Shown: positions 1,691 through 47,920 of the stretch, one piece after another | How the letters are laid out: each line of letters begins with the position of its first letter | How positions within the stretch are numbered: the stretch's first letter is position 1 | Assembly: GCA_000403275.2 (NCBI GenBank) | Contig: KE159600.1 | Coordinates: forward strand, 331,708 to 395,707 | DNA from: Lachnospiraceae bacterium 28-4 | GTDB taxonomy: Bacteria > Bacillota > Clostridia > Lachnospirales > Lachnospiraceae | Direction of reading: 5' to 3' | DNA length: 64,000 nucleotides | Made by a program: the position numbers and the translations under genes | The notes under the pieces: model-generated | Told to the model about the DNA's origin: nothing | The model's database searches: none | What the model saw: the letters and a program-made list of their open reading frames with translations, nothing else

Positions 1691-2049
1691 CATCCGAAAA
1701 TCAATGTTTGTAAGTGTTATGAAGTGTCATAGCCGAGGGAAGCCAAAGGGATCGGGAAAGGAGCTGTCGGGGGGCGGTTTTCTGCCGAAGCTTCCAATCA
1801 GATTTCACTAATGAAATGGGTAATGATATTCAACCGAACGAGCCGGAAGCAACGGCATCCATGCCTATGCTTCCTAAAATTGCCCTCCGTGGCAATTTTT
1901 CTCTGATTATCGCCCATTTCATAAGTGAAATTACTGATTGTACGCAACAGCAAAAAACCGCCCCCCGACAGCTCCTTTCCCGACCCCTTTGGCCCTCCAT
2001 CCCCTTTGGCTTCCTTCGTCCATGACACTTACAAACATTGATTCCCGTC
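1691..2049. repeat. Fold-back element A1 (MITE-like, core type A)
   Basis: A large imperfect palindrome. The outer arms (about 1691-1790 and 1951-2049) match each other as an inverted repeat, including the motifs ATCAATGTTTGTAAGTG and GGAAAGGAGCTGTCGG. A core of 160 bases (1791-1950) starts with CTTCCAATCAG, then ATTTCACTAATGAAATGG, and ends with CATTTCATAAGTGAAAT and TGTACGCAACAG. Inside are two hairpins: GGAAGCA/TGCTTCC at 1845-1874, with an inner GGCA/TGCC, and AAAATTGCC/GGCAATTTT at 1876-1899. No plausible protein is encoded. It lies directly upstream of the pyrC promoter and next to element C. No target duplication is evident at this copy. Confidence 0.8.
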
Positions 2050-2073
2050 CCGCCAATATTATGTAGCGGCAGA

Positions 2074-2330
2074 GAGGAAGCTTGGCGCGAGGGCGGGGGC
2101 GGAGAGGCATATTTTTTTGCGTTGTTTTCGGCGGACATTTTTCTTAGCAGAATGTGCGGCAACCAAGGGAACCGTGCCATGGACGGCACGGTTCGTCTGC
2201 TGCGGCAGGATGCCGCTTTGCAGACATCCCGGACGGTTCCCGCAACCTTCCCATTCTGCTTAGGAAAATGCCCGCCGAAAACCCCGCAAAAAAATATGCC
2301 TCTCCGCCTCCGCCCTCACAGCATCTCCTC
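2074..2330. repeat. Fold-back element C (different core)
   Basis: A second palindrome only about 25 bases from A1. The arms at about 2074-2155 and 2250-2330 are inverted repeats of each other, sharing GGCGGAGAGGCATATTTTTT, then GTTTTCGGCGG and AGCAGAATG. The centre carries a 10-bp hairpin GAACCGTGCC/GGCACGGTTC (2169-2194) and a nested hairpin GTCTGC/GCAGAC enclosing GCGGC/GCCGC (2195-2225), so it folds as a multi-branched structure. It does not have the ATCAATTTT ends of the A and B elements. It begins right after the stop of the PrcB-like lipoprotein gene and could end its transcript. Confidence 0.7.
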
Positions 2331-2339
2331 CCCCTTATT

Positions 2340-2771
2340 TCAATCAAACACTACCGACTTATCCATATATTCAATCTTCAGCACCACATAAGGATAAGAA
2401 GCGCCGTCCCTCTCCTGTGCCCCGTACAATTCCCTGTTTTCCGGCTCCGGCCCAATCAGATTCGTATCTACATAAATAGAATTTCCCGTCAGATACAGAT
2501 CATTGACCGTAATGCTATAACCGCCTGTCTCCTGTCTGCCATAGCCAACACATATATACAAAAAATCCCCGTCCTGATAGGTCATCTTGAATTCTTTTTC
2601 TTTCTTCTGTTCCATAATCTCCTTTAACTCTCCCGGTATATTATCTTCTCCCAATACCGTAAATTCGATATCCTTGATCTTTTCATTCCCGTCCTTTGTC
2701 TTCACCGCGCACCCGCACAGGCAGCATAGGATAACCGCTGCAAATAAAAATAAAATATGGCGTTTCTCCAT
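2340..2771 (-). CDS. PrcB-domain lipoprotein
   Basis: A 143-residue predicted lipoprotein. The signal sequence ends in the lipobox LCGC near residue 21, so the mature protein would be anchored to the outer face of the membrane. The middle has YGRQETGGYSITVNDLYL and the end has PYVVLKIEYMDKSVVF. That layout resembles the PrcB C-terminal (protease-complex accessory) domain, in which a G-R-x-T-G-G-Y-x-I strand is typical. The exact role of such small clostridial lipoproteins is not known. Its 3' end abuts element C by about ten bases. The family assignment rests on motif memory only. Confidence 0.6.
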   Translation of the reverse strand: MEKRHILFLFAAVILCCLCGCAVKTKDGNEKIKDIEFTVLGEDNIPGELKEIMEQKKEKEFKMTYQDGDFLYICVGYGRQETGGYSITVNDLYLTGNSIYVDTNLIGPEPENRELYGAQERDGASYPYVVLKIEYMDKSVVFD

Positions 2772-2867
2772 TTTACCGATTCCTTCGCCTTTTTTTCTAT
2801 TCTATTTATCGCCGAAGGCAACTATTCCTTTTGGAGATATAATCTCCATGGAAATCATAAAACCCCA

Positions 2868-2896
2868 TTGCTTTACCTTCCCCGCTCCGCTATAAT
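2868..2896 (+). promoter_or_regulatory. Sigma-A-type promoter of plsC
   Basis: TTGCTT (2868-2873) and TATAAT (2891-2896) with a 17-base spacer, about 35 bases before the plsC start. Upstream, near 2832-2847, is a small palindrome GGAGAT-ATA-ATCTCC of unknown meaning, perhaps an operator. Confidence 0.7.
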
Positions 2897-2931
2897 GGGA
2901 AAAGAAATAATATACACGAAAGGATAAACTT

Positions 2932-3690
2932 ATGTTTCGATTTATTTGTCTCGCAAGCTTTGTCATTCTGTTCCTCATCCTCAGCATTCCCCTTCTGATC
3001 GTGGAATGGATCATCGGCAAATTCAATATGGAGTTAAAAAGCAAAAGTTCTCTGGCTATTGTCAACTGGGCGTTCCGCAGATGCCTGGATATCACCGGCG
3101 TCTCTGTCACTGTTATCGGAGAAGAAAACATTCCGAAAGATACCGCCGTATTGTACGTGGGCAACCATCGGAGTTATTTTGATGTCCTGCTCACCTATGT
3201 CCGCGTTCCACGCCCTACCGGCTACATCGCAAAAAAAGAAATGCTTCGTTACCCTCTCCTTGTCAACTGGATGAAAAACCTCCACTGTCTTTTTCTTGAC
3301 CGTAAAGATATCAAGCAAGGTTTGAAAACGATTCTGGAAGGCATCGAAAAGGTAAAATCAGGCATTTCCATCTGTATTTTCCCGGAAGGCACCAGAAACA
3401 AAGTAAACGACACCTTCCTGCCCTTCCACGAAGGCAGCTTTAAAATCGCGGAAAAATCCGGCTGTCCCATTATACCCATGAGCATTTATAATTCCGCAGC
3501 CATTTTTGAAGATCATCTTCCCAAAATAAAAAAAGCCCACGTGATTCTCGAATATTGCCCGCCGGTCTATATGAAAGATCTGACCAGGGAAGAACGTAAA
3601 TTCGTAGGCTCCCATGTGTTAAATGTGATTAAAGAAACATATTTCAAGAATAAAGCGGAAATGGAAGCTAGAAAAGGAGCTACACACTAA
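2932..3690 (+). CDS. plsC: 1-acyl-sn-glycerol-3-phosphate acyltransferase
   Basis: A 252-residue membrane-associated acyltransferase that makes phosphatidic acid from lysophosphatidic acid. The N-terminus is a hydrophobic helix (residues 3-25). The catalytic NHxxxxD motif appears as NHRSYFD near residue 82, and the substrate-binding FPEGTRN near residue 148. A late proline segment CPIIPMSIYN is also typical. AAAGGAT lies before the ATG. It is one of few plus-strand genes here and stands alone, with its own promoter and a downstream hairpin. The motif order fits PlsC well; exact acyl specificity cannot be read from sequence. Confidence 0.9.
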   Translation: MFRFICLASFVILFLILSIPLLIVEWIIGKFNMELKSKSSLAIVNWAFRRCLDITGVSVTVIGEENIPKDTAVLYVGNHRSYFDVLLTYVRVPRPTGYIAKKEMLRYPLLVNWMKNLHCLFLDRKDIKQGLKTILEGIEKVKSGISICIFPEGTRNKVNDTFLPFHEGSFKIAEKSGCPIIPMSIYNSAAIFEDHLPKIKKAHVILEYCPPVYMKDLTREERKFVGSHVLNVIKETYFKNKAEMEARKGATH

Positions 3691-3716
3691 GTAATTAGTG
3701 CGCAGCTCCTTTTCTA
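3669..3716 (+). terminator. Terminator after plsC
   Basis: A perfect stem AGAAAAGGAGCT/AGCTCCTTTTCT with inner CACT/AGTG. It overlaps the plsC stop codon. The second half supplies TTTTCT. Confidence 0.6.
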
Positions 3717-3723
3717 TGCAGCA

Positions 3724-3760
3724 AACAACTGCCAGACCTCGAAAGAATCCGGCAGTTGTT
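3724..3760. terminator. Hairpin between plsC and vapC genes
   Basis: AACAACTGCC (3724-3733) pairs with GGCAGTTGTT (3751-3760), followed by an A/T-rich tract. It lies between converging genes and could act in either direction. Confidence 0.45.
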
Positions 3761-3844
3761 ATAAAATTAATGTATAGCCAAACATATTAACTTATAGAAA
3801 AATTATAGTCCAAATCAGGATTGAAATTTTTCATGCCGCCTTAA

Positions 3845-4249
3845 TCATACAACTATTACACAATCTTCCTCGTAAAATTGAATCTTGGAATCATGTGTAA
3901 CAAATTTTAAGTTATCAGCTTTTGCTTGAGCAATCATAATCCGATCAAAAGGGTCATTATGCGTTTGATTTAGATTATGAAATACCAACATTTCCAATGC
4001 TTTCACATGTTTATCACAAATTGGCGCCATTTGATACCCCATTTCCTGACATAAATCTGATAGCCTGGAGCCGCTAATCCGAATCTTATCTGGCCTTGAC
4101 ATATATTTTATTGTTATTTCCCAAATAGATGCTGAACTATAATAAATCTCATTTTTTATATCCATTATTAAAGTTCTGGCCTTATTGGACAACTTTGGAT
4201 TATCATCCAATGCCCATAGAATAATATGTGTGTCTAATAACAGTTTCAT
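3845..4249 (-). CDS. PIN-domain ribonuclease toxin (VapC-like)
   Basis: A 134-residue PIN-domain protein. It opens with MKLLLDTHIILWALDD, which carries the first conserved acidic residue. SASIWEI supplies the middle acidic residue, and NDPFDRIMIAQAKADNLKFVTHD supplies the late aspartates of the metal site. These proteins are usually magnesium-dependent RNases of type II toxin-antitoxin systems. Its start overlaps the end of the upstream small gene by four bases, the normal antitoxin-toxin arrangement. The target RNA cannot be told from sequence. The pair is visibly more A+T-rich than its neighbours, suggesting horizontal gain. Confidence 0.85.
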   Translation of the reverse strand: MKLLLDTHIILWALDDNPKLSNKARTLIMDIKNEIYYSSASIWEITIKYMSRPDKIRISGSRLSDLCQEMGYQMAPICDKHVKALEMLVFHNLNQTHNDPFDRIMIAQAKADNLKFVTHDSKIQFYEEDCVIVV

Positions 4250-4479
4250 TCTGCCACTCCAAACATTTTCGCAATCTCTGGGTTCATTTCATCAAAATCA
4301 TATTCATCATCATATAAATCCTGTCCTCTTGCAATTCCAATTCTATTTGAAGTTACCGATGCCTTTTTTTTCACAGTATCAGGTAACATAAAACGCTCTA
4401 TCATATCTAATAAAAAACGCAGATTATCTTCTGATAAATCATCAACCCTTTGAAGCACCTGTTCTTGTAATGTCAACAT
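4246..4479 (-). CDS. VapB-like antitoxin
   Basis: A 77-residue acidic small protein directly upstream of, and overlapping, the PIN toxin gene. I chose the ATG at 4479 because AGGAAGGTGG lies just before it; the longer frame from 4509 would translate through that ribosome site. The N-terminal half, TLQEQVLQRVDDLSEDNLRFLLDMIERF, is a helical segment. The C-terminal half, DLYDDEYDFDEMNPEIAKMFG, is acidic and likely disordered, as expected for the toxin-binding part. I see no clear DNA-binding motif of a named class, so the role is inferred mainly from position. Confidence 0.7.
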   Translation of the reverse strand: MLTLQEQVLQRVDDLSEDNLRFLLDMIERFMLPDTVKKKASVTSNRIGIARGQDLYDDEYDFDEMNPEIAKMFGVAE

Positions 4480-4715
4480 CAAACACCACCTTCCTACAAA
4501 ATCCAGCATCCTTCTATTATCTTTATTATATGTATTTTAACACAAAATATATCAATTTCATTGTACATCAAAAAACCGCTTTCCTCAATCTGTTTCTTTG
4601 CTACGTTATTGTCAAGTAATCATTTGAAACATATTTTCAAATATACTTCTAAATTCATCTGTTGGTATTTGTCTGGTCTGTCCGGTTGTTTTTATTCCCC
4701 CCCTAAACCGGCTGG

Positions 4716-5216
4716 CTAATGCCGAATCACCCTCGGCAACACTTCGTCGATATCCACATAATAATTCTTATAATTATCCCCTTCCACGTAGACCCTCACC
4801 ATCCTGTCCTTGAACAGCGATTCCGGGTTGAAATACAGGCATCTGCTTTTAAAGATATGCACATTTCCTGCCATATCCCAATATTGGCACTCCACCACAT
4901 AAGGGCTTTTGCCATTGATGCGCACGTTATAATTAATCTTTGTCTCCGCAATCTCTGCCATAATATAACTTCCTGACTGCAGCAGCCTGTTGCACTGCTG
5001 CTTCCGCCTAATCTTTATCACCAGGAATACCAGGCCGATCGCAAGAAAAATCAATCCCATGCTCCCATACACTGACAAAAAAATAATGTTTCCTTCACCT
5101 GGAACCGCCAAAAATACGGAAATCCCTACGGCAATCAAAATCGGGCCTAAAATAGCAAAAACAATCCCAACAATTAGCACTCCGTCGAATCCAATCTTTG
5201 CTTTCCGTTCCATCAC
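4716..5216 (-). CDS. Two-helix membrane protein, DUF3592-like
   Basis: A 166-residue protein with two membrane segments in the first 70 residues (about 10-38 and 44-67), then a basic stretch KIRRKQQC and a soluble beta-rich domain. The soluble part contains YVVECQYWDMAGNVHIFKS and ends with VYVEGDNYKNYYVDIDEVLP. Length and layout resemble DUF3592-type membrane proteins of Firmicutes, whose function is unknown. It ends close to the O-antigen-ligase-like gene on the same strand and may be downstream in the same transcript. Confidence 0.5.
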   Translation of the reverse strand: MMERKAKIGFDGVLIVGIVFAILGPILIAVGISVFLAVPGEGNIIFLSVYGSMGLIFLAIGLVFLVIKIRRKQQCNRLLQSGSYIMAEIAETKINYNVRINGKSPYVVECQYWDMAGNVHIFKSRCLYFNPESLFKDRMVRVYVEGDNYKNYYVDIDEVLPRVIRH

Positions 5217-5229
5217 CCTGTCCCTCCAT

Positions 5230-6828
5230 CTACTGCTGTCTTCTGTTCTTCTTTTCCTCTCCCAACCTCATCTTCGCCGCGCCGATCCCCATCAATACGA
5301 AAATGAGGGGTGTTCCGATAATCTGCTGGTAGCAGAGTACATTATGGGCGATATAGCCTGCGGCCGCCAGCCCTGCCCCGAAGATTACCGCTGACTCCCC
5401 GTCCTCTGCGGACAGCGCCGTCCTCATACATGCATAGGCCGACGAAACAAAAATGCCCAGATAAGCCAGCCCTCCGACCAAGCCATAATTGATCACCGCA
5501 TTAAACCATTCGTTATGTACGTTCGGCACGAGCTGGTTATGCCAGAACTCATTAATCGCATCCCCCATCAGTCCATAGGCATACGGCGTGAATCCGTCCG
5601 GGCCGCAGCCGAACAACTTTCTCCATATGGTAAAATCACCGAATACCGCCGCGCCTGTCCGCCAAATAAATCCTCTGCTGTTTCCCCACCATATCGTAAA
5701 CCGGAAATAATTTTCCGTAGGGGAACCGGCAAAATATCCTTTTCCATGCAGGATAAACAAAATAATAACCCCTATTACCACCGCTCCCACTATAGCGAGA
5801 TATATCCCCCTGAAAATCAAGATATTTCTCCTCTTTCCAACAATGTTAATTTTTTCCTTCCTGACCAGCAGATAAAAAGCTGCCAACACCGCCAGCAAGG
5901 GATATAAAAGCACACTCTGTGCCGTTTTTAAATAAACTGCATCGATGGGAACCATCCGATCCCCGCACAGCCTTTCCCCGATTCCTATCAAAACCGCGGC
6001 GCCTAAAGCGATCATTAGCAGTTCCATAAGGCGCATAACTCTGTCTCTGTTTCCCGGAGCCAGCCATAGCAGAATCATAAACGCCGCCGCCAGCGCGATC
6101 ACCCCGCTGTCACAGTTCAACACCATCTCCGCCGCAAAACCGATCCCGATGCCAACTCCGCACCATGTTCTTTTTTTCCCCGGCTGCGAACAAAAATAAA
6201 TTCCCATTCCCGCCACCAGCAATATACTGACATAACTGGAAGTCCATGTCACCTGCCCCAAAGTGGTAACGAAATTCATCCGCACATCATCCCCAAATCC
6301 CCGGTAAAGATGCAGCACATCCACGCCAAAACGCTGTAAAATGATAATCAATCCCACCACGATTCCGGCCGCCGCGCCAGCGACATCCAAATAAGCCATT
6401 CCTTTATAGCCGAAGGAAACCATAAAATAGATTCCCACAAACAACAACTGCGCCACAAGACCGGTATACCAAGTATCCACCCCCCAGAGAGCCGAAGGCC
6501 GGTCTGCCGCGGTCGCATAAGAAATCACCGCACAGATGAGATAACCAAGCACAAACCAGTCTATCCACAGTAATTTCACTTTTTTACTCTTTTTTTTCTC
6601 TTTTTTCCGCTCAGGCAAATACCAGACCAGGCTCACCAATAAAGCCGCTGCCGTAGCATACAAAAACAGCGCCCATTTCTTGTATACCAGATCCATATAC
6701 CCATTTACAAGAAAAAGAGGATATAAGACAAGCATAATCAATAAATATATATTCACGGTCCATGATTTAATCCGTTCCGAAGCAGTCGTATAGTCTGCGG
6801 ACACTTTCTTTTTCATCGTATTTTCCAT
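5230..6828 (-). CDS. O-antigen ligase / Wzy-like polytopic membrane protein
   Basis: A 532-residue protein with about twelve hydrophobic segments. A large loop late in the protein contains GCGPDGFTPYAYG and the conserved segment VPNVHNEWFNAVINYGLVGG near residue 440, the hallmark of the Wzy_C / O-antigen ligase family. In monoderm bacteria such proteins are thought to polymerise or ligate cell-surface polysaccharide. GGAG precedes the ATG. It sits among cell-wall genes (murF, ddl) on the same strand, consistent with an envelope role. The actual substrate is not known. Confidence 0.75.
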   Translation of the reverse strand: MENTMKKKVSADYTTASERIKSWTVNIYLLIMLVLYPLFLVNGYMDLVYKKWALFLYATAAALLVSLVWYLPERKKEKKKSKKVKLLWIDWFVLGYLICAVISYATAADRPSALWGVDTWYTGLVAQLLFVGIYFMVSFGYKGMAYLDVAGAAAGIVVGLIIILQRFGVDVLHLYRGFGDDVRMNFVTTLGQVTWTSSYVSILLVAGMGIYFCSQPGKKRTWCGVGIGIGFAAEMVLNCDSGVIALAAAFMILLWLAPGNRDRVMRLMELLMIALGAAVLIGIGERLCGDRMVPIDAVYLKTAQSVLLYPLLAVLAAFYLLVRKEKINIVGKRRNILIFRGIYLAIVGAVVIGVIILFILHGKGYFAGSPTENYFRFTIWWGNSRGFIWRTGAAVFGDFTIWRKLFGCGPDGFTPYAYGLMGDAINEFWHNQLVPNVHNEWFNAVINYGLVGGLAYLGIFVSSAYACMRTALSAEDGESAVIFGAGLAAAGYIAHNVLCYQQIIGTPLIFVLMGIGAAKMRLGEEKKNRRQQ

Positions 6829-6878
6829 CCTCGCTCCTGCCGCTCAATGCAAACCATTATTAATCCGTAATTGATCTC

Positions 6879-8276
6879 TTAGCGCAGGGTACTTGATTCT
6901 TTCAGTGCCTTCACAATCTCTTCAAAAGCCATGCCATGGGACGCCTTCACTAAAACCGTATCTCCCGCCTTTATTATGTTCCCTTGCTGTTCCAGGAATT
7001 GCTCCTTATCGGGGAAATAATAAATTTCCGGCCCGGAAGCATCTTCGTTTCTTTCAGATCCAAGAGCCCCTTCGTACATATCCCTGGCCAGGTTCCCAAT
7101 ACAGATAACCGCGTCAATTCCGCATTCCGCCGCATAGGCTCCCGTCTGCCGGTGCATCTCCCTCTCCTTTTCCCCCAGTTCGAACATATCCCCGAGTACC
7201 GCGACTTTCCTCGTCGCCGCACTGGCCAGCAAATCCAGGGCGGCCCGCATGGATACGGGATTTGCATTGTAGCAATCATCGATAAGCGTCTTGTCCCCCG
7301 CCTGTATTCTATTGCTTCTTCCATCCACAGGCTTTACCGCCATGATGCCTTGCAGAATCTCTTCTCCCTTCAGTTCCATCAAGCTTCCCACACAAGCCGC
7401 CGCCAGTGCATTATAAACCATATGCTCTCCCGGCAGCGGAATCTTTGCGTCCAAAATCTCTTTTCCTATATGTATCCGGGCCAGACTCCCTTCCAACCCC
7501 CTGTTTTCAATCCCTTCGGCATAAACCATATGATCCTGCCCGATACCAAAAGTCAAAGGCTTCCTTCCCTTTACTTCTTCCAACGTCCTGAGCATATCAT
7601 CGTCGCCATTGATACAGACGGCACCGTCTTCATTCATAAAATCAAAAATCTCGGACTTCGCTTTTAATATGCCTTCCCTTGATTTCAAATTTTCCAGATG
7701 GCACTGTCCGATATTGGTCAATACACAAATATCCGGCTTCGCAATCTCGCTTAATCTGTGCATCTCCCCGAAATCGCTGATACCCATCTCCACCACCGCG
7801 ACTTCATGCTCCTCCCTGATCTTCAATATCGTAAGAGGAAGCCCTATTTCATTGTTAAAATTCCCCTCCGTTTTCAATACCTTATATTTTGTTGCCAGGA
7901 CAGAGGCAATAAATTCTTTCGTGCTGGTTTTTCCCACGCTTCCCGTAACGCCCACAACCGTGACCCCGAGTATCTGCCTGTAAAAACGGGCCAGATCCTT
8001 CAATGCCTGAAAAGAATCCTTCACTAAAATATAAACGCCGGCCTCATCCTTCGGTTCCCGTTCGCAAATAACGCCCGCCGCTCCCTTTTCAAAAACCTGG
8101 GGAATAAAATCATGCCCGTTTACCCGCTCCCCCTTCGTTGCAATAAACAAGTCGTTCTCTCCGGCCTGGCGGGAATCCAGCGTTACGCCGGACACTTCCC
8201 TGTCTTCCTCCGGATAATAATTGTAAAGCGTTCCTTTACATATCTTCGCTATATTCTTTAACGTCAAATATCTCAT
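6879..8276 (-). CDS. murF: UDP-N-acetylmuramoyl-tripeptide--D-alanyl-D-alanine ligase
   Basis: Adds D-Ala-D-Ala to the UDP-MurNAc tripeptide in the cytoplasm. Visible: N-terminal MurF domain with LDSRQAGENDLFIA, the ATP loop GVTGSVGKTSTKEF near residue 112, the EMGISDFGEM segment, and the C-terminal DDCYNANPVSM domain. I take the ATG at 8276, preceded by GGGGAG, giving 465 residues. A longer frame to 8351 would overlap the end of ddl and has no ribosome site. ddl lies 35 bases upstream, so the two make and use D-Ala-D-Ala from one transcript. Confidence 0.93.
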   Translation of the reverse strand: MRYLTLKNIAKICKGTLYNYYPEEDREVSGVTLDSRQAGENDLFIATKGERVNGHDFIPQVFEKGAAGVICEREPKDEAGVYILVKDSFQALKDLARFYRQILGVTVVGVTGSVGKTSTKEFIASVLATKYKVLKTEGNFNNEIGLPLTILKIREEHEVAVVEMGISDFGEMHRLSEIAKPDICVLTNIGQCHLENLKSREGILKAKSEIFDFMNEDGAVCINGDDDMLRTLEEVKGRKPLTFGIGQDHMVYAEGIENRGLEGSLARIHIGKEILDAKIPLPGEHMVYNALAAACVGSLMELKGEEILQGIMAVKPVDGRSNRIQAGDKTLIDDCYNANPVSMRAALDLLASAATRKVAVLGDMFELGEKEREMHRQTGAYAAECGIDAVICIGNLARDMYEGALGSERNEDASGPEIYYFPDKEQFLEQQGNIIKAGDTVLVKASHGMAFEEIVKALKESSTLR

Positions 8277-12807: not shown

Positions 12808-12809
12808 AG

Positions 12810-18087: not shown

Positions 18088-18432
18088 AGCCATCAATTTT
18101 TTCAGAGGGCAGGGCGCGGGGGAAGGGGGGAAGAACGGCCGGGGCCGGAGGCCATAGGGAGGGCGGAATTTCCGGCTGGAGCTTCCAATCAGATTTCACT
18201 AATGAAATGGAGAAGGGATATGAAGCCGGACGGGACGGAAACGAAAGGCATCCGTGCCTTACGTTTCCTAAAACCGCCTCCATGCGGTTTTCCCTGGGTG
18301 GTTGACCATTTCATAAGTGAAATTGCTGATTGTACGCAACAGCCGGAAATTCCGCCCTCCCTATGGCCTCCGGCCCCGGCCCTTCTCCCACCTCTTCCCC
18401 CCACGCCCTGCCCTCTGAAAAAATTGATGGCT
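18088..18432. repeat. Fold-back element A2 (core type A)
   Basis: Arms at about 18088-18181 and 18343-18432 are inverted repeats of each other, starting with AGCCATCAATTTTTTCAG and continuing through a G+C-rich stretch unlike the other copies. The 161-base core (18182-18342) has the same boundaries as in A1. Its hairpins differ by paired changes: GGAAACG/CGTTTCC (18237-18268), where other copies have GGAAGCA/TGCTTCC, and AAAACCGC/GCGGTTTT (18270-18291), where A1 has AAAATTGCC/GGCAATTTT. This preserves pairing. It lies between the GH112 gene terminator and the aconitase promoter. Confidence 0.8.
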
Positions 18433-30883: not shown

Positions 30884-30900
30884 GATAAAGGGGTATTTTG

Positions 30901-31288
30901 CCACGGAAATCAATTTGAGAGGCCTGGGAGTAGCAGGACGGGTTCAGGCAGTGCCACCAGGAATACCAGGCGGAAGCGGAATGGGACAGGCTGCACGCGG
31001 ATTTCAGCTGCTTTGCGAAGGGAAATGAGATTTTCTTAATATTCCGTTCAGCAAACAGCAATTTGGTGACACGGATGTCACCAAAAGTCCGCAATGAGCC
31101 TGGATGGCGAATCGCGGACGGTTGCGCCCGGCAGATGCTGTTTTACCGGAATATTTAGAAAATCCGTTTCCCGAAGCCAGCGCGGAAATCCGCGTGCAGC
31201 CTGTCCCATTCCGCTTCCGCCCGGCATTCCTGGTGGCACTGCCTGAACCCGTCCTGCTAATCTAGACTTTCAAAATTGATTTCCGTGG
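30901..31288. mobile_element. Fold-back element B (same ends, different core)
   Basis: A 388-base palindromic element. The arms (about 30901-31046 and 31147-31288) are near-identical inverted repeats. They start CCACGGAAATCAATTT, as in element A4, and include CAGGACGGG, GGCAGTGCCACCAGGAAT and GCGGAAGCGGAATGGGACAG. The centre has hairpins TTGGTGAC/GTCACCAA (31063-31084) and GTCCGC/GCGGAC (31087-31119). The flanks TATTTTG and TATTTTA look like a 7-bp target duplication with one change. It fills the gap between the end of ileS and the glgP promoter. No reading frame looks like a protein. Confidence 0.8.
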
Positions 31289-31311
31289 TATTTTACTGCC
31301 GACAGTATAAC

Positions 31312-34604: not shown

Positions 34605-34905
34605 CTGATGAAGTAAAAAACACCCCTGTCCCGTAAAAGGACGGAGTGTCGATCCGTGTTACCACCGTTTACATTCATACGCCTATATCGTTTTCTATAG
34701 GTTATATGGTTTCCTTTAACGGCGGAATGCCGTCGGCGCTTACTGCCTCGCTATATTTTTCTTCCATCATAGCAAAGGTTCTGCCCGCAACTCAGGAGTG
34801 ATATTCAGCGCCCTCTACTCTCACCGGTCTTCCACCATCCCCGGCTCGCTTTGGATTTCAAAAAACACTTACTGTCTCCGTCACAGTCTTTCTCATTCTT
34901 ATATA
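34605..34905 (-). ncRNA. Isoleucine-specific T-box leader of ileS
   Basis: On the minus strand the leader has stem I with the specifier region GAATATCACTCC, in which ATC (34800-34802) is an isoleucine codon. It also has the AGTA and GGGGATGGTGGAA distal-loop motifs, then the T-box core GGTGGTAACACGG (about 34654-34666). A terminator hairpin ACACTCC/GGGGTGT with a T run follows (34615-34649). Uncharged tRNA-Ile is expected to favour the antiterminator and so raise ileS expression. About 120 bases separate the terminator from the start codon. Confidence 0.9.
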
Positions 34906-34958: not shown

Positions 34959-35298
34959 CACGGCAATCGATTTTTATAAGCGCCCTGGAGGAGAAAGCAA
35001 AACGGGGCGGGGGCGGCTGGAAAGAGAGCGGACAGGGGGCAGTTTTCTGCCGTTGCGTACAATCAGTCATTTCACTTATGAAATGGTCAACAACCAGAGT
35101 AAGCCCGCCAGGATGGCGGAGCTTAGGAAGCATAGGCATGAATGCCGTTGCTTCCGACTCGTTCGGTTCCATTATCTTACCCATTTCATTAGTGAAATCT
35201 GATTGGAAGCTCCGGCAGAAAACTGCCCCCTGTCCGCCCTCTTTCCAGCCGCCCCTGCCCCGTTTTGCTTTCTCCTCCAGGGCGCTTATAAAAATTGA
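34959..35298. repeat. Fold-back element A3 (core type A, inverted)
   Basis: Arms at about 34959-35049 and 35210-35298 differ at only about three places over 78 bases. Their inner parts differ strongly from those of A1 and A2. The left end CACGGCAATCGATTTTT matches the common terminus with two changes; the right end is lost after AATTGA. The 160-base core (35050-35209) is in the opposite orientation to A1. Its hairpins are AAGC-CGCC/GGCG-GCTT (about 35101-35124) and GGAAGCA/TGCTTCC (about 35126-35155). Confidence 0.8.
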
Positions 35299-41505: not shown

Positions 41506-41554
41506 AGTATTCCTCCATTCTTGCTCCGCCCGCCCATTGGGACACAGGCACAAA

Positions 41555-42490
41555 TTAGTTTGCATGGAATATATCTCTTGCCAGTCGGATGCCCGCCTGG
41601 GCAGGGCTTTGATTGAGCGGAATATACTCGATATTCCCATGCCCTGTCTTTTCCCTGAATATTCCCTGGAATGTCCGCCTGTAAAAGTCCCCTTTAAAAA
41701 TACTTCCCGATATCACTACATGAATTTTTTCCTGTTTTTCCGGATGTATTCTTTCATACACCGCAACGGCCAAATCCGCCGTTTCCTCCGCCGCTTCCGC
41801 AACCACCTGTCCGCACAGGCTGTTCCCCCTGTCCGCTCCATCGCAGACCAAGTGCGCGGCCGCCGTAATATCTCTCTGGCTCATAGCTGCAATATAATAC
41901 GGCAGCTCTTCCGCCTTCTCAAAGTGATAGAACTCTTCCAGCGTTTGGTAAATCTCGTTATAAGCCTCTTGTCCATCACAATATTTAATCCATTTTTTCA
42001 GCATCTGCTCCCCGATCCAATATCCCGATCCCAGATCGCTCAACGGCCTTCCCCATCCTCCGCAGCGATACGTTTTCCCTTCTTTATCAAAACCAACCGC
42101 GATAGAACCCGTGCCGGATATTACGCATATGCCCGGCTTGTCCGCCACAGACAAAAAGACAAATTCCGAATCGTTGCAAATATATACTTTTTTCAAATCC
42201 AGTCCCATATGCTTCACAATGGACTGGTATACCGCATAATCGCTTTCCGTATCGCATCCGGAAACCCCTATGACCATCCCCTGGATTTCCTGTAATTCGA
42301 TATTCAGGGAATCGCAGATGGTATAAAAAGCATTTTTCAACCGGGAAGCCGCTTCCTTTAATCCTATGTTCTTATAGTTTGTGCTTCCGAAGCGGAAACT
42401 CTGCATTTTGCGCAAATCCATATCATAAACGCAATATTCTGTCTTTGTGCCTCCTCCGTCAACGGAAAACAAATATCTTCCTTCCGGCAT
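41555..42490 (-). CDS. BadF/BadG-type N-acetylglucosamine-kinase-like protein
   Basis: A 311-residue ASKHA-fold kinase. The phosphate loops are FSVDGGGTKTEYCVYD at the start, NDSEFVF and VISGTGSIAVGF near residue 120, with GGWGRPLSDLGSGYWIG following. Such enzymes phosphorylate glucosamine, GlcNAc or related amino sugars. AAAGGAGGCGGG precedes the ATG. It lies between the ROK regulator and the binding protein and would phosphorylate the imported sugar. Confidence 0.85.
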   Translation of the reverse strand: MPEGRYLFSVDGGGTKTEYCVYDMDLRKMQSFRFGSTNYKNIGLKEAASRLKNAFYTICDSLNIELQEIQGMVIGVSGCDTESDYAVYQSIVKHMGLDLKKVYICNDSEFVFLSVADKPGICVISGTGSIAVGFDKEGKTYRCGGWGRPLSDLGSGYWIGEQMLKKWIKYCDGQEAYNEIYQTLEEFYHFEKAEELPYYIAAMSQRDITAAAHLVCDGADRGNSLCGQVVAEAAEETADLAVAVYERIHPEKQEKIHVVISGSIFKGDFYRRTFQGIFREKTGHGNIEYIPLNQSPAQAGIRLARDIFHAN

Positions 42491-42530
42491 TATCCCGCCT
42501 CCTTTCCTGAAAATATTTTCCGGTAAATTG

Positions 42531-43646
42531 TCAAATCCCGCTTTTCAGGACAAGCTGCTTCGTAGTTGACAAATTCGCCATACACAAATTAATTAATCCA
42601 TTAATACCGCATTCTTCATCTTCATTGATATAAAATCCAGGAAGGCTTTCTTCCGGTATATACTTTTTTACCTCCTCCTTTATCGCGGATATGCTGTTCT
42701 CGGCCAGCCCTTTTCCCTGGAGAACCACCGCTTCCGGATTCAACGTTACAATATACCCTACTATACTGGCAGCTATATAATGGATATACTTTTCATCCGT
42801 CCGTTCTCCGCATTCTCCAGTTTCATTTTTTGAAAGAAAATATTGTATCTTGTCTTCCAGCCATCCTCCTCCCTGCGCATAATTTTTTTCTTCCGTTTCC
42901 TCAAAAGGAGCGAGATACCCAAACTCTCCGGCGAAACTGCTGAACCCTTTATGAAGGCTCCCGTTAATAATGATCCCTGACCCGATCCCTTTTCCGATAT
43001 AAATATATACCATATCATGGCATGGCTCTTTCGGATGGTCATGCTTTTGCCCAAACGTGTGATAATAGCCTACGGTAGTAAGTTTTACGTCATTTTCGAC
43101 AAAAACGGGAATCTGGTATTTCTCAGACACAACCTCCTCCAGTTTCAGATTCGTCCATCCCGGTATTGCAGAAATATTGGTAATACGTTTATCGCTTTTT
43201 ACAACGCCCGGAACTCCAAAGCCAATCGCCCTGACCTCCGCCTCCGATATTCGTATCAGCTCATCAATCGCTTCGTATGCGGATTCCAGCGCCAGCTCTC
43301 CCGTTTCGCAGTTCACTTCCGACAGCTGTTCGTGGATTTTGCTTCCTACCGCATTTACCAGACAGGAACGGAAGGCTCCGTTCAGATAATAGAGAATAAT
43401 CATATTCCCTGCCTTTTCATTCGCCACATATTGTTTTGCCTTTTTTCCCGAACTGCTTCCGGTAATCCCGTCCTGCCTGACGATTCCGTCTCTCTCCAAC
43501 CCGTCCACAATTTTATTCACCGTCGGCAAACTCAAATTGGATGCCTTGGCCAACTCCGGTTTTGTAATGGGACCCTCTTCAAAAATCATATCCTTTATAA
43601 TGTCCCGGTTTACTTCTTTCAATAATTTTGGCTGCCCTACTAACAT
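42531..43646 (-). CDS. ROK-family transcriptional repressor
   Basis: A 371-residue regulator of the NagC/XylR type. The N-terminal winged helix is EEGPITKPELAKASNLSLPTVNKIVDGLERDGIV. The sugar-kinase-like ROK domain has IGFGVPGVVKSDKR, VENDVKLTTVGYYH, YIYIGKGIGSGIIINGSLHKG and a late AGEFG. It lacks a full cysteine zinc cluster, so it may be a pure sensor. It heads the operon of kinase, importer and PLP enzyme, with a palindromic operator over its own transcription start. Likely induced by the imported sugar or its phosphate. Confidence 0.9.
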   Translation of the reverse strand: MLVGQPKLLKEVNRDIIKDMIFEEGPITKPELAKASNLSLPTVNKIVDGLERDGIVRQDGITGSSSGKKAKQYVANEKAGNMIILYYLNGAFRSCLVNAVGSKIHEQLSEVNCETGELALESAYEAIDELIRISEAEVRAIGFGVPGVVKSDKRITNISAIPGWTNLKLEEVVSEKYQIPVFVENDVKLTTVGYYHTFGQKHDHPKEPCHDMVYIYIGKGIGSGIIINGSLHKGFSSFAGEFGYLAPFEETEEKNYAQGGGWLEDKIQYFLSKNETGECGERTDEKYIHYIAASIVGYIVTLNPEAVVLQGKGLAENSISAIKEEVKKYIPEESLPGFYINEDEECGINGLINLCMANLSTTKQLVLKSGI

Positions 43647-43667
43647 ATCGATATCCCTCTTTCACTA

Positions 43668-43692
43668 TTAATTAATAAACTTTATTAATTAA
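43668..43692. promoter_or_regulatory. Operator palindrome of the ROK operon
   Basis: TTAATTAATAAA-C-TTTATTAATTAA is a perfect 25-base palindrome with a central C. It covers the predicted transcription start of the operon, the expected place for ROK repression. Confidence 0.75.
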
Positions 43693-43697
43693 TTAAG

Positions 43698-43726
43698 ATT
43701 ATATATCTCTTTGTTCAATATGTCAA
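43698..43726 (-). promoter_or_regulatory. Promoter of the ROK-kinase-importer operon
   Basis: Consensus TTGACA (43721-43726) and TATAAT (43698-43703) with a 17-base spacer on the minus strand, directly next to the operator palindrome. Confidence 0.85.
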
Positions 43727-43778
43727 CATATGAATTGATATTTTTCTTTTCTTTATCTATTTTTGTTAAGAAAATGAA

Positions 43779-43807
43779 TTGATTTCTTCCTGTTTTTCCC
43801 TTATGAT
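43779..43807 (+). promoter_or_regulatory. Promoter of pncB-degV
   Basis: TTGATT (43779-43784) and TATGAT (43802-43807), spacer 17 bases, about 50 bases before the pncB start. It diverges from the ROK promoter. Confidence 0.65.
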
Positions 43808-43859
43808 AGTCATTAAATAACTAATTGCCGGTATTGGCGCAACAGATTGGGAGGCGAGC

Positions 43860-45314
43860 ATGGACAGACAAAATTTGACCTTATTGACCGATCTTTATGA
43901 ACTGACGATGATGCAGGGATATTTTAAACATAAAGACCAAAATGAAACCGTTATTTTCGACGCGTTTTACCGTACAAATCCCGGCGAAGGAGGTTATTCC
44001 ATAGCTGCCGGGCTCGAGCAGGTCATTCAGTATATTAAGGAATTGCATTTCTCCGATGAAGATATTCGGTATCTTGCCGGACTCGGAATCTTTGAGCAGG
44101 ATTTCCTTGACTATCTGAAAGACTTTAAATTTACCGGCGATATTTACGCGATCCCCGAGGGAAGCGTTATTTTCCCAAGAGAACCCTTGATTAAGGTGAT
44201 CGCTCCCATTATGCAGGCCCAGCTGATTGAAACGGCCATATTAAATATTATTAACCACCAAAGTCTGATCGCAACCAAGGCAGCCAGAGTATGTTATGCT
44301 GCCAGAGGGGACGGAATTATGGAGTTCGGCTTACGGCGCGCCCAAGGGCCAGACGCTGGCACATATGGCGCGAGAGCAGCCGTAATCGGCGGCTGCATCG
44401 GCACTTCCAATGTATTGTGCGGCAGACTTTTTGACGTTCCGGTGAAAGGAACCCATGCCCATAGCTGGATCATGAGTTTTCCCGATGAATACACCGCATT
44501 TAAAACCTATGCGGATATGTACCCTTCGGCCTGTATCCTGCTGGTGGATACTTATGATACTTTAAAATCAGGAGTTCCCAACGCCATAAAAGTATTTACG
44601 GAAATGCGCCGGGCAGGTACGCCCCTCACCTATTACGGCATTCGCCTGGACAGCGGCGACCTGGCTTATCTGTCCAAAAAAGCCCGTAAGATGCTGGATG
44701 AAGCCGGTTTTCCTGACGCCGTTATTTCCGCTTCTAATGACCTGGACGAGTTTCTTATTGACAGCCTGAAGGTGCAGGGCGCGGCAATCACCTCCTGGGG
44801 GGTAGGCACTAACCTGATCACCTCCAAAGACTGCCCATCCTTTGGCGGCGTATATAAACTGGCGGCCATCCAGGATAAAAACGGTCAGTTTATCCCCAAG
44901 ATCAAACTATCCGAAAACAGCGAAAAAGTGACCAATCCGGGCAATAAAACCATTTACCGCATTTACGAGAAAGCTTCGGGAAAGATAAAAGCCGACCTGA
45001 TCTGTCTGGTAGACGAAAAATTCGATGAAAACGAACCGCTGCTCCTTTTCGATCCTCTGGAACCCTGGAAAAAAACGAAGCTCCAGGGCGGCAGTTACAC
45101 TATGCGGGAAACCATGGTTCCTATCTTCTTAAAAGGCGAATGCTGCTACGAATCGCCAAAAGTTATGGACATCCGTGAATATTGCCGGAAAGAACTGGAT
45201 ACCCTCTGGGATGAAACAAGGCGTCTTGTCAATCCCCACAAGGTATATGTAGACCTTTCAAAGAAATTGTACGATATTAAAATAGAACTGCTGGACCGTA
45301 TGGGACAGGTTTAA
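43860..45314 (+). CDS. pncB: Nicotinate phosphoribosyltransferase
   Basis: A 484-residue enzyme making nicotinate mononucleotide from nicotinate and PRPP for NAD salvage. Family features: NLTLLTDLYELTMMQGYF at the start, FGLRRAQGPDAGTYGARAAVIGG near residue 155 (phosphoribosyl binding), GTHAHSWIMSF with the active-site histidine, RLDSGDLAYLSKKAR and GVGTNLITSKDCPSFGGVYKL. GGGAGG precedes the ATG. degV follows after about 30 bases. Confidence 0.94.
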   Translation: MDRQNLTLLTDLYELTMMQGYFKHKDQNETVIFDAFYRTNPGEGGYSIAAGLEQVIQYIKELHFSDEDIRYLAGLGIFEQDFLDYLKDFKFTGDIYAIPEGSVIFPREPLIKVIAPIMQAQLIETAILNIINHQSLIATKAARVCYAARGDGIMEFGLRRAQGPDAGTYGARAAVIGGCIGTSNVLCGRLFDVPVKGTHAHSWIMSFPDEYTAFKTYADMYPSACILLVDTYDTLKSGVPNAIKVFTEMRRAGTPLTYYGIRLDSGDLAYLSKKARKMLDEAGFPDAVISASNDLDEFLIDSLKVQGAAITSWGVGTNLITSKDCPSFGGVYKLAAIQDKNGQFIPKIKLSENSEKVTNPGNKTIYRIYEKASGKIKADLICLVDEKFDENEPLLLFDPLEPWKKTKLQGGSYTMRETMVPIFLKGECCYESPKVMDIREYCRKELDTLWDETRRLVNPHKVYVDLSKKLYDIKIELLDRMGQV

Positions 45315-45343
45315 CTCAGCTTTCATGAAACGAGGTGTTTATT

Positions 45344-46225
45344 ATGCTGAAAATTATTACGGACTCCGCCTCAGATTTACCGAAGGAGTATATCGACGCC
45401 CATCATCTTCATGTCATACCTACTCCTGTGGTCATCGATGAGACGGACTACCTGGATGGCAAAACAATCCTGACAAAAGAATTTTATAACATATTAGACG
45501 ATACCAAACGGGACATCCGTACTTACCATATCAATCCGGCTATGTTTGAAGAAGCCTTTCTCCCCTATGCACAAGCCGGAGATTCCGTGATCTACATTTG
45601 CTTTTCCACTGGTATCGCCGGAACCTTTAATGCGGCCCATATCGCCAAAACAAATGTGTTGGAACAATACCCTGATTTCGACCTGACTATTATTGATTCC
45701 AAATCCGCTTCCATCGGTTTCGGCCTTCTCGTATCCAAGCTGGTGACGATGCTGGAACACGGAGCCTCCAGGGAAACCATTGTGGAAGCGGCAGATTACT
45801 TTATCTCCCATATACACCATGTATTCACGGTGCATACCCTGGCCTATCTTGTCAAAGGCGGCAGACTTTCCAAATTCAAGGGTACAATTGCCGAAACGCT
45901 GGATATGAAGCCGATTCTTATTGTAGATAAAAACGGCAGCCTGCAAATGCTGAAAACTGTCCGCGGACGGAAAAAATCTCTGAAGGCGCTTGTTGATTAT
46001 GCAAAAACCAACGGCTATGAACTTTCCTCCCAAACGCTGGCCTTCTGCCACGGAGAGGATGAGGAAGCGCTTCGGTTTCTCCTAACTCTTGCTGACGAAG
46101 AATTAAAGCCAAAAGACAAGCTGATATCCACCGTAGGCTGCGCCATCGGCGCCCATACCGGAAGAGGGATCGCAGGTCTCTGCTTTCTGGATGCCTCCGA
46201 AGAAAAATACAGGGAATTTCTTTAA
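45344..46225 (+). CDS. DegV family fatty-acid-binding protein
   Basis: A 293-residue protein. KIITDSASDLPKEY at the start, FSTGIAGTFNAA with the lipid-contacting threonine/serine, IIDSKSASIGFGLLV and VGCAIGAHTGRGIAG near the end are typical. DegV proteins (FakB-like) hold a fatty acid for phosphorylation by FakA, though family members vary. The ATG at 45344 follows GAGGTG. It is probably co-transcribed with pncB; a strong terminator follows. Confidence 0.9.
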   Translation: MLKIITDSASDLPKEYIDAHHLHVIPTPVVIDETDYLDGKTILTKEFYNILDDTKRDIRTYHINPAMFEEAFLPYAQAGDSVIYICFSTGIAGTFNAAHIAKTNVLEQYPDFDLTIIDSKSASIGFGLLVSKLVTMLEHGASRETIVEAADYFISHIHHVFTVHTLAYLVKGGRLSKFKGTIAETLDMKPILIVDKNGSLQMLKTVRGRKKSLKALVDYAKTNGYELSSQTLAFCHGEDEEALRFLLTLADEELKPKDKLISTVGCAIGAHTGRGIAGLCFLDASEEKYREFL

Positions 46226-46262
46226 AAGAATAAAAAACAGGGATAGGGAATTTCCTTCATTT

Positions 46263-46305
46263 CAAAAATACCCCGTTCGGCCCGAAAACCGAACGAGGTA
46301 TTTTT
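46263..46305. terminator. Bidirectional terminator between degV and the SDR gene
   Basis: AAAAATACCCCGTTCGG pairs with CCGAACGAGGTATTTTTT. Runs of A and T flank both sides, so it can end transcripts from both converging genes. Confidence 0.85.
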
Positions 46306-46327
46306 TATAAATAACGCCTAAATTTCC

Positions 46328-47065
46328 TTAAGTCATCGCTGCGCCGTCTACCCGCAAAGTAACGCCGGTAATATAGGACGCCTGGTCGCTGGCCAAAAAC
46401 AAATAAGCATTCGCAATATCCAAAGGCTCTCCCACACGGCCCAAAGGAATTCCCGCAGATATCCGCTCCACCATTTCCTGCGGAAGGGCCGCCACCATAT
46501 CGGTCTTTGTAACTCCGGGTGCCACAGCGTTTACGCGGATCTGATCCTTTGCCAGTTCCCGGGCCAGGGATTTCGTCAACCCATTTACCGCAAACTTCGT
46601 CGCAGGATAACCGCAGCCGGAAGGCTGCCCATATTCGCCTACCATGGAACTCGTATTGATAATAACTCCTCCGCCCTGAGCTTTCATAATCCGGGCCGCC
46701 GCCTGGGAACAAACGAAAACGGCCTTCAGATTAATATCGAGAATCTTAGAAAATTCTTCCAACGTATAATCATACAGACTGGTTCTGGAAGAAATACCTG
46801 CGTTATTAGCCAGAATATCTACCCCTCCAAACCGTTCTTTTACGGAAGAAAACGCCATGGCAACCGCTTCCGGATCGCAAAGATCGGGCCAAATGCCCAT
46901 AACCCGATCCCCGTATTCCGTCAATTCCGCCAGCGCTTTATCCACCGTTTCTTTTCTGGAGCCGGCTACGGCAACATTCGCGCCGTTTTCCAGATATTTT
47001 TTAACAATAGCAAGGCCAATGCCTCGGGTACCGCCTGTTACGACGGCTGTTTTGTTTTTTAGCAT
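46328..47065 (-). CDS. Short-chain dehydrogenase/reductase (FabG-like)
   Basis: A 245-residue Rossmann-fold oxidoreductase. Cofactor loop TGGTRGIG at about 10-17, NNAG near residue 89, the catalytic serine in INTSSMVG and YPATK (YxxxK) near residue 154. The C-terminus ITGVTLRVDGAAMT is typical. The substrate cannot be told from sequence. It begins 26 bases after the end of the PerR-like regulator gene, so it is likely in its transcript and may answer to peroxide or metal. Confidence 0.88.
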   Translation of the reverse strand: MLKNKTAVVTGGTRGIGLAIVKKYLENGANVAVAGSRKETVDKALAELTEYGDRVMGIWPDLCDPEAVAMAFSSVKERFGGVDILANNAGISSRTSLYDYTLEEFSKILDINLKAVFVCSQAAARIMKAQGGGVIINTSSMVGEYGQPSGCGYPATKFAVNGLTKSLARELAKDQIRVNAVAPGVTKTDMVAALPQEMVERISAGIPLGRVGEPLDIANAYLFLASDQASYITGVTLRVDGAAMT

Positions 47066-47091
47066 AAGTCCATCCCTTTCTTCATTAAAAT

Positions 47092-47472
47092 TTATATATT
47101 ATTATTGTCGTTTAATTGTTTCCTGCAGTCGGGGCATAAGTAAAAAACTTTTAAATCATAATATAAAAATGCATCCCCCACACTATTCCGCAAAGATGCG
47201 GTCAAGTCTTCAAAACTGGTATCCACCAGTCTGCCGCAGCGTCTGCAGACCAGATGATCGTGCTTTTGAGTGCGGTCATACCGATCCGGGCTTCCCGCAA
47301 CGGATATCTTACGGATTAATCCGGCTTTCCATAGCTTATTCACATTATTGTATATCGTTGCAAGCACTACCTTCGGATATTCTTCTTTCACTTGTTTAAA
47401 AATTTGTTCAACGGTTAAATGTTCCGTCGACGCGTTTATCACGGTATAAATTTTTTGTTCATATGTAGTCAT
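47092..47472 (-). CDS. perR: Fur-family regulator, PerR-like
   Basis: A 126-residue regulator. The winged helix is HLTVEQIFKQVKEEYPKVVLATIYNNVNKLWKAGLI. The metal part contains HDHLVCRRCGRLVD and YLCPDCRKQ, giving the two CxxC pairs of the structural zinc site. The ATG at 47472 follows GGTGGGG; the frame to 47505 crosses the first operator. Two PerR-type boxes lie in its own promoter, so it is autoregulated. Fur or Zur function cannot be fully excluded, but the box sequence favours PerR. Confidence 0.8.
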   Translation of the reverse strand: MTTYEQKIYTVINASTEHLTVEQIFKQVKEEYPKVVLATIYNNVNKLWKAGLIRKISVAGSPDRYDRTQKHDHLVCRRCGRLVDTSFEDLTASLRNSVGDAFLYYDLKVFYLCPDCRKQLNDNNNI

Positions 47473-47506
47473 ATTATCCCCACCACAAAAATATATCGCT
47501 TTCATT

Positions 47507-47540
47507 TTAGAATTATTCTATCTATTTTAGAATAATTCTA
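47507..47540. promoter_or_regulatory. Two tandem Fur/PerR-type operators
   Basis: TTAGAATTATTCTA (47507-47520) and TTAGAATAATTCTA (47527-47540), centres 20 bases apart and so on the same helix face. The second overlaps the -10 box of the perR promoter. Both resemble the PerR box. Confidence 0.8.
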
Positions 47541-47563
47541 CTCTTATGCAATTCATTTGTCAA
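47535..47563 (-). promoter_or_regulatory. Promoter of perR-SDR
   Basis: On the minus strand TTGACA (47558-47563) and TAGAAT (47535-47540) have a 17-base spacer. Element A4 begins 17 bases upstream of the -35 box. Confidence 0.75.
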
Positions 47564-47580
47564 TGCCTAAACTGAAAAGA

Positions 47581-47920
47581 ACACGGAAATCAATTTTTAT
47601 AAGCGCCCTGGCGGACCAAGCAAAACGGGTTGGGGGGAAGGGAGCTGGCGTGGAAGCGGTTTTCTGCCGTTGCGTACAATCAGCTATTTCACTTATGAAA
47701 TGGTCAATAACCAGAAGAAAATTGCCACGGAGGGCAATTTTAGGAAGCATAGGCATGGATGCCGTTGCTTCCGACTCGTCCGGTTGAACACCATATACCC
47801 ATTTCATTAGTGAAATCTGATTGGAAGCTCCGGCAGAAAACCGCTCCCACACCAGCTCCCTTCCCTCCCAACCCGTTTTGCTTGGTTCGCCAGGGCGTTT
47901 ATGAAAATTGATTTCCGTGT
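47581..47920. mobile_element. Fold-back element A4 with 7-bp target duplication
   Basis: A 340-base palindromic element with ends ACACGGAAATCAATTTT. Arms (about 47581-47666 and 47827-47920) match each other with a few transitions. The 160-base core (47667-47826) is in the A3 orientation, with hairpins AAAATTGCC/GGCAATTTT (47718-47741) and GGAAGCA/TGCTTCC (47743-47772). GAAAAGA occurs directly on both sides (47574-47580 and 47921-47927), as expected for a target duplication. It lies between the spoVT terminator and the perR promoter. No transposase is in the window. Confidence 0.85.

What the first reader, a model, noticed from the sequence alone, without database searches (positions are those of the whole stretch)
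1691..47920. Fold-back element family A: four copies with a conserved core and copy-specific paired arms
Seen: copies at 1691-2049, 18088-18432, 34959-35298 and 47581-47920 share a core of 160 or 161 bases with identical boundary motifs (CTTCCAATCAG and TGTACGCAACAG). Inside, one hairpin is GGAAGCA/TGCTTCC in three copies and GGAAACG/CGTTTCC in A2. The second is AAAATTGCC/GGCAATTTT, AAAACCGC/GCGGTTTT or AAGC-CGCC/GGCG-GCTT. These are compensatory changes, so the fold is under selection. The outer 86-100-base arms match their partner in the same copy far better than they match any other copy. Inference: a mobile or regulatory element acting through a folded RNA or single-stranded DNA, with arms kept alike by within-copy conversion.
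Basis: partly seen in the sequence, partly recalled or inferred. Interest (0 to 1): 0.85.

Follow-up and report, generated by a model that had tools for sequence, protein, structure and literature searches.

The report
Self-mirroring hairpin transposons capped by TwoAYGGAY
A gut bacterium carries more than eighty small jumping-DNA-like elements, each a long hairpin capped by an RNA structure of unknown function called TwoAYGGAY, and the two arms of a hairpin appear to be copied from one another so that they stay matched while differing from every other copy.

Summary
The four copies are real. Their cores belong to Rfam RF01731 (TwoAYGGAY RNA, function unknown, typed Cis-reg in Rfam). The window holds two more relatives, and the genome at least 84 cores of two main types.

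They look like non-autonomous terminal-inverted-repeat transposons (MITEs): a shared tip, CACGGAAATCAATTTTT, and 9-bp target duplications (at least 7/9 matching in 11 of 41 copies, 0.08 expected). They have no strand preference relative to genes.

The arms are copy-specific: 93% alike within a copy, 60-63% between copies. G.U and A.C mismatches are equally common (105:117), so RNA pairing does not explain the match. Seven of 62 copies have perfect detected arms of 56-105 bp, though core pairs reach at most 94% identity. Three of 41 are palindromic beyond the tip. One well-supported orthologue has 19 mirrored substitutions and a mirrored 16-base indel against 5 single-arm changes. I read this as hairpin-templated arm conversion in place.

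Against: in relatives with shorter arms, mismatches persist between orthologues. The transposase was not found and the core's function is unknown. An IS4-family element hit one core hairpin loop in 6 of 8 copies.

The parts
1691..2049 (-). Element A1 (A type): arms plus TwoAYGGAY core at 1788-1947
   Evidence: RF01731 85.4 bits; arms 0.78 alike; tip remnants at both ends
2089..2317 (+). Third-type element next to A1; core 2120-2286, short paired arms
   Evidence: RF01731 59.4 bits; ungapped arm of 31 bases
18088..18432 (-). Element A2 (A type); core 18179-18339
   Evidence: RF01731 83.8 bits; arms 0.94 alike
30893..30901 (.). Left 9-bp target duplication of the B element (GTATTTTGC)
   Evidence: 8 of 9 match the right copy; read
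30902..31287 (+). Element B; core 31013-31179; both tips CACGG...
   Evidence: RF01731 115.7 bits; tips read
31288..31296 (.). Right 9-bp target duplication of the B element (GTATTTTAC)
34959..35298 (+). Element A3 (A type); core about 35043-35222; right tip decayed
   Evidence: Not reported by Rfam at E<=0.1; matches model R1, of which it is a member
47573..47581 (.). Left 9-bp target duplication of A4 (TGAAAAGAA)
   Evidence: 8 of 9 match the right copy; read
47582..47919 (+). Element A4 (A type); core 47670-47830; both tips CACGGAAATCAATTTT
   Evidence: RF01731 85.4 bits; arms 0.93 alike
47920..47928 (.). Right 9-bp target duplication of A4 (TGAAAAGAC)

Best explanation
The copies belong to a high-copy family of non-autonomous terminal-inverted-repeat transposons, mostly about 270-465 bp by arm detection, whose apex is the TwoAYGGAY RNA structure. 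Shown: shared tip, 9-bp target duplications, an element present in a related species where this genome has none, no strand preference to genes, arms matched within copies and not between them, no wobble bias in the arms, mirrored substitutions and indels between orthologues, palindromes that run past the tip into host DNA. Inferred: a transposase acting in trans, not identified, inserted the copies. When the element is single-stranded during replication or repair it folds, and one arm serves as template to rewrite the other (template switching, as in quasipalindrome correction), so each locus keeps a near-perfect palindrome while its sequence drifts. Also inferred: the two core hairpins are kept by selection as RNA, for an unknown function.
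For: Tip motif at 84 sites against 3 for the reversed control. Duplications of at least 7/9 in 11 of 41 copies, 0.08 expected, concentrated at equal offsets on both sides. G004 has an element flanked by GGCATGAAG on both sides where this genome has none, though the flanking bases here have diverged. Within-copy arm identity 0.93 (56 copies) against 0.60 (A) and 0.63 (B) between copies and 0.52 shuffled. 7 of 62 copies perfect over the detected arm, while the most alike cores are 94.4% identical counting gaps, 96.2% without gaps. Arm mismatches G.U 105, A.C 117. Both tips share the same private change at 42 positions, differ at 5, one tip only at 68. Palindrome past the tip in 3 of 41 copies, 0.03 expected. 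Target-duplication mismatches 21/126 against arm mismatches 88/1182 in the 14 copies with duplications of at least 6/9 (p=0.001). Orthologue L181/L050, core best match both ways: 19 mirrored substitutions and one mirrored indel, 5 single-arm, 1 complex.
Against: In 20 close orthologue pairs of named gut genomes with B-type cores, 78 arm mismatches are shared by both species, 45 are single-arm and 20 mirrored: no fast correction there. Two of the four same-type orthologue pairs have cores that are not each other's best match, and core type differs at one or more shared sites, so replacement of whole elements also happens. 30 of 41 anchored copies lack a duplication of at least 7/9. No transposase with these ends found.
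Confidence: 0.7

Rival explanations
1. Selection on one long RNA (or single-stranded DNA) hairpin keeps the arms paired through ordinary compensatory mutations; no copying between arms.
For: Core hairpins covary and favour G.U over A.C, 21:6; arms are paired in most copies.
Against: Arms show no G.U excess (105:117; 45:56 summed over 45 copies in six other genomes). Arms share whole mirrored indels of 16 bases and more between orthologues. Palindromes run into host DNA in 3 of 41 copies.
Confidence: 0.1
2. Turnover: arms match because each copy was recently made or replaced as a unit by transposition or ectopic conversion; there is no copying in place.
For: Core type differs at the same insertion site in L101/L154, probably L045/L168; B/B orthologue cores are not best matches; in other genomes mirrored changes are commoner where cores differ, 54 mirrored, 46 single-arm and 42 shared.
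Against: No near-identical source copies among those compared. L181/L050 has orthologous cores yet mirrored arms. Copies with duplications decayed to 6/9 have perfect or near-perfect arms (C3:403988, C2:470641).
Confidence: 0.15
3. TwoAYGGAY is a host small RNA that sequesters CsrA (Gardner and co-workers' suggestion, PMC4333381, passages read), present in many copies for dosage; mobility is incidental.
For: GGA loops resemble CsrA sites; this genome encodes CsrA.
Against: CsrA in 11 of 14 genomes with and 31 of 47 without elements; G003, 97% complete, has elements and no CsrA hit. No transcription data.
Confidence: 0.15
4. Assembly or sequencing artefact that creates inverted copies of flanks.
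For: One G015 copy (L126) is the centre of a palindrome of more than 800 bp near a contig end, which looks like a fold-back artefact.
Against: More than 80 copies with unique flanks in large contigs; the same sites are occupied in a separately assembled species.
Confidence: 0.02

Closest known systems
TwoAYGGAY RNA (Rfam RF01731; Weinberg et al. 2010, PMC2864571, passages read)
   Same: The core is a member by score and structure. The 2010 table rates it probably RNA, probably not cis-regulatory.
   Different: Rfam types it Cis-reg. Here it is the apex of a transposon-like element with long private arms, tips and target duplications; the passages read do not describe this.
Bacterial MITEs (review PMC10969869, one passage seen by term search)
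   Same: Short, non-autonomous, terminal inverted repeats, target duplications, many intergenic copies.
   Different: The inverted repeat is 70-150 bp, private to each copy and evolves in a mirrored way; the centre is a conserved structured RNA; no autonomous partner found.
Template switching / quasipalindrome correction (PMC8794818, abstract and passages; PMC7202029, listing only)
   Same: One arm of an inverted repeat is rewritten from the other, giving paired multi-base changes.
   Different: Here a dispersed mobile family with arms of about 90 bp around a folded 160-base core; seen only by comparison, not by assay.
Insertion sequences that target extragenic palindromes (PMC1525189, listing and start of abstract only)
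   Same: An IS inserts preferentially into a repeated palindromic element.
   Different: Target is the loop of a TwoAYGGAY hairpin, and the IS is of the IS4 family.

Membership tests
TwoAYGGAY RNA (RF01731) | Covariance-model score above the gathering cut-off of 43 bits | tested here: met
   5 of 6 window elements reach 59.4-115.7 bits; A3 is not reported at E<=0.1 but is alike in sequence
TwoAYGGAY RNA (RF01731) | Two hairpins with GGA loops on an outer helix | tested here: met
Cis-regulatory RNA (Rfam type of RF01731) | Consistent position and strand upstream of genes | tested here: not met
   Both neighbours on the element's strand in 18, both opposite in 18, divergent 21, convergent 5 of 62. 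Neighbours tend to point away, but strand is not biased
MITE | Terminal inverted repeats with a conserved tip | tested here: met
   84 tip sites against 3 in the control
MITE | Fixed-length target-site duplication | tested here: met
   9 bp; 11 of 41 at >=7/9, 0.08 expected; GGCATGAAG twice in G004
MITE | Autonomous element with the same ends | tested here: inconclusive
   No paired tips in 19 loci of IS256, DDE_Tnp_1 and UPF0236 hits; 5 of 20 DDE_Tnp_1 hits had no locus; other transposase families not searched
CsrA-sequestering sRNA | Occurs with CsrA | tested here: inconclusive
   11 of 14 with elements, 31 of 47 without
CsrA-sequestering sRNA | Transcribed and bound by CsrA | not testable with these tools
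   needs RNA-seq and binding assays
Template-switch maintained inverted repeat | Mirrored multi-base changes between orthologues | tested here: met
   46 mirrored and 17 single-arm substitutions, 4 mirrored and 2 single-arm indels at two loci against G004; not met in 20 close pairs of other genomes

The most novel reading that the evidence does not exclude
TwoAYGGAY is not a host regulatory RNA but the structured cap of a self-correcting fold-back transposon: the folded cap brings the arms together so that each copy keeps rewriting one arm from the other, and every locus becomes a private, drifting palindrome that outlives transposition, while its exposed cap loops serve as a CsrA decoy and as landing sites for insertion sequences.
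Probability: 0.25. Interest if true: 0.85.

Novelty: new variant of a known kind. Interest (0 to 1): 0.7.

Why it matters
It puts an RNA family of unknown function, typed cis-regulatory in Rfam, into a mobile element, which changes what one would test. It offers dozens of loci per genome for watching arm-to-arm copying in bacteria. It is also a warning for RNA covariation analysis: arms can covary almost perfectly through a copying process, without selection on an RNA fold.

Tried and rejected
Rejected: a strand bias relative to genes. It appeared because loci L001-L030 with minus-strand hits are not turned to the match; after correction it vanished. Alignments A1 and A2 are misoriented for the same reason and were replaced by A3 and A4. 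The G.U and A.C counts are superseded. The arm identities of 1.0 come from free end gaps and are superseded.

Led nowhere: tip pattern in genome contigs and viral contigs (none); core patterns in viral contigs (none); whole A4 element in plasmids and phages (none); a transposase beside unpaired tips; paired tips around IS256, ISLre2 and other DDE hits. I first took the IS4 copies flanked by weak core hits for the autonomous partner (note); one search showed that the IS sits inside cores and has other ends.

Dropped before counts: 33 of 74 elements (tips not found on both sides); two of four same-type orthologue pairs (a tip could not be placed on one side); L179/L015 and L185/L007 (one flank only); 4 of 38 pairs (arms too short). 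L070/L087 first looked like one site with swapped type; its right tip is about 13 bases off, so I count it as a separate insertion. L057/L102 is ambiguous. The pairs overlap and are not independent. One search's G015 total includes L126, the likely fold-back artefact.
Full report
OBSERVATION. The four copies exist. Cores A1, A2 and A4 match Rfam RF01731 (TwoAYGGAY) at 83.8-85.4 bits. A3 is not reported by Rfam at E<=0.1 but is found by model R1, built from 35 A-type cores with A3 among them. Two more members lie in the window: a B type at 31013-31179 and a third type at 2120-2286. The genome holds 62 RF01731 hits. R1 gives 62 A-type hits of at least 120 bits, and none overlaps the 22 B-type hits, which makes 84 cores. 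This is a lower bound, since only 150 of 2000 first-look candidates were scored.

ANATOMY. From the outside in: 9-bp target duplication; tip CACGGAAATCAATTTTT; a private paired arm with a G-rich 5' side (paired positions G 0.42, A 0.24, C 0.18, T 0.16; flanks 0.23-0.27 each); the core. Two core hairpins with GGA loops covary (12 of 18 pairs changed on both sides, shuffled mean 6.2). In the 34 copies with both tips placed, arm length runs from 72 to 147 and the two arms differ by a median of 1 base.

MOBILITY. Duplications of at least 7/9 occur in 11 of 41 copies, 0.08 expected, concentrated at equal offsets on both sides. In species G004 an element with GGCATGAAG on both sides stands where this genome has no element, although the bases at that point have diverged here. 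The reverse also occurs: a truncated A-type element here, none in G004. L110 is a derivative of about 50 bp with two tips and no core. Context: 21 divergent, 18 and 18 co-directional, 5 convergent gene pairs of 62, with ORFs of at least 100 codons. Neighbours thus tend to point away from the element, but its strand is not biased. The most alike cores are 94.4% identical counting gaps (56 copies) and 96.2% without gaps, so there is no sign of recent spread.

ARMS. Within-copy identity averages 0.93 (56 copies), between-copy 0.60 (A) and 0.63 (B), shuffled 0.52. Seven of 62 copies are perfect over the detected arm of 56-105 bp. Mismatches are G.U 105 and A.C 117; summed over 45 copies in six other genomes, 45 and 56. 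Pairing selection on an RNA would favour G.U. The core hairpins do, 21:6 (Fisher p=0.004 against the arms), although most of that comes from the A type (18:5; B type 3:1). Both tips often carry the same private change: 42 same, 5 different, 68 on one tip only, of 656 positions. Among the 14 copies with duplications of at least 6/9, duplication mismatches are 21/126 and arm mismatches 88/1182 (p=0.001); three of these copies still have 18-23% mismatched or 11 changed arm positions, so correction is uneven. In 3 of 41 copies the palindrome continues 10-15 bp into host DNA, 0.03 expected, and there the duplication is lost.

ORTHOLOGUES. I compared 23 G004 loci, holding 24 of the 37 hits counted, with the own loci held. 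Sites occupied in both: two A/A, two B/B, and four with A here and B there, of which one is offset by about 13 bp and one ambiguous. One G004 site has no element here. At L181/L050 the core is the best match both ways (1 of 62, 1 of 20), and the arms show 19 mirrored substitutions, one mirrored 16-base indel, 5 single-arm and 1 complex change. At L187/L011 there are 27 mirrored and 12 single-arm substitutions, but the core is not the best match, so replacement is possible. L101/L154 shares its site and duplication (CTGCGATTT/CTGCGATTC in G004) while the core type differs, which points to replacement of elements at old sites.

AGAINST. Among named gut genomes with B-type cores (68 copies in loci with enough flank, median arm 33 bases, 19 with arms of 60 or more), 20 close orthologue pairs show 78 mismatches shared by both species, 45 single-arm and 20 mirrored. 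In 14 pairs with more diverged cores the figures are 42, 46 and 54. Conversion is therefore slow or limited to long arms, and part of the mirrored signal may come from replacement. The pairs overlap and are not independent.

DISTRIBUTION. RF01731 hits in 14 of 61 relatives, own genome included, and in 36 of 391 genomes drawn from the class, 27 over the cut-off. A B-core pattern matched 95 stretches of genome contigs; of the 80 listed most are titled Lachnospiraceae, the rest Roseburia, Butyrivibrio, Clostridia or unnamed. No match in plasmids, phages or viral contigs with the queries used.

LANDING SITE. An IS4-family element (1591-1592 bp, 10-bp duplications) has seven full copies and one truncated copy. 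Five full copies, and the truncated one judged from its left flank, sit in the first core hairpin loop. Of 100 listed loop-like motifs (131 in all), 6 of 28 core sites were hit and 0 of 67 outside (p=0.0004). Of 16 genomes of the genus it is present at more than 37% identity only here.

KNOWN WORK. Seven papers hold the word TwoAYGGAY, five listed. I read passages of three; those passages do not describe transposition or mirrored arms. A library search for bacterial inverted-repeat elements with concerted evolution and one for Lachnospiraceae palindromic repeats listed nothing on this element by title or abstract start. Template switching as a maker of paired changes is known (PMC8794818). That paper reports an excess of G-C and U-A pairs; the arms here have the G-C excess but more A-U than U-A, so the match is partial.

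VERDICT. A family of TwoAYGGAY-capped terminal-inverted-repeat elements whose arms are homogenised in place, most likely by hairpin-templated copying. What the core does remains open.

Noticed in passing
L195, L197-L200, L202 (own genome, outside the window): An IS4-family IS sits in the first hairpin loop of A-type cores in 6 of 8 copies, its 10-bp duplication being the loop.
   Followed up: partly
window 34634-34893, minus strand: T-box-like leader, 79.4 bits, below its gathering score of 93 (E 1.5e-15), beside element A3.
   Followed up: no
L101 (own genome) against L154 (G004): Same insertion site and duplication but A-type core here and B-type there: elements may be exchanged in place.
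   Followed up: partly
window 1788-2286; C3:653045/653430, C1:1195130/1195564, C2:131313/131680, C1:1031191/1031554: Five pairs of adjacent elements lie with their 5' ends facing each other.
   Followed up: no
L126 (G015:C2, near the contig end): A core is the centre of a palindrome of more than 800 bp, probably an assembly fold-back.
   Followed up: no
L110, positions 2967-3016: Element of about 50 bp with two tips and no core.
   Followed up: no
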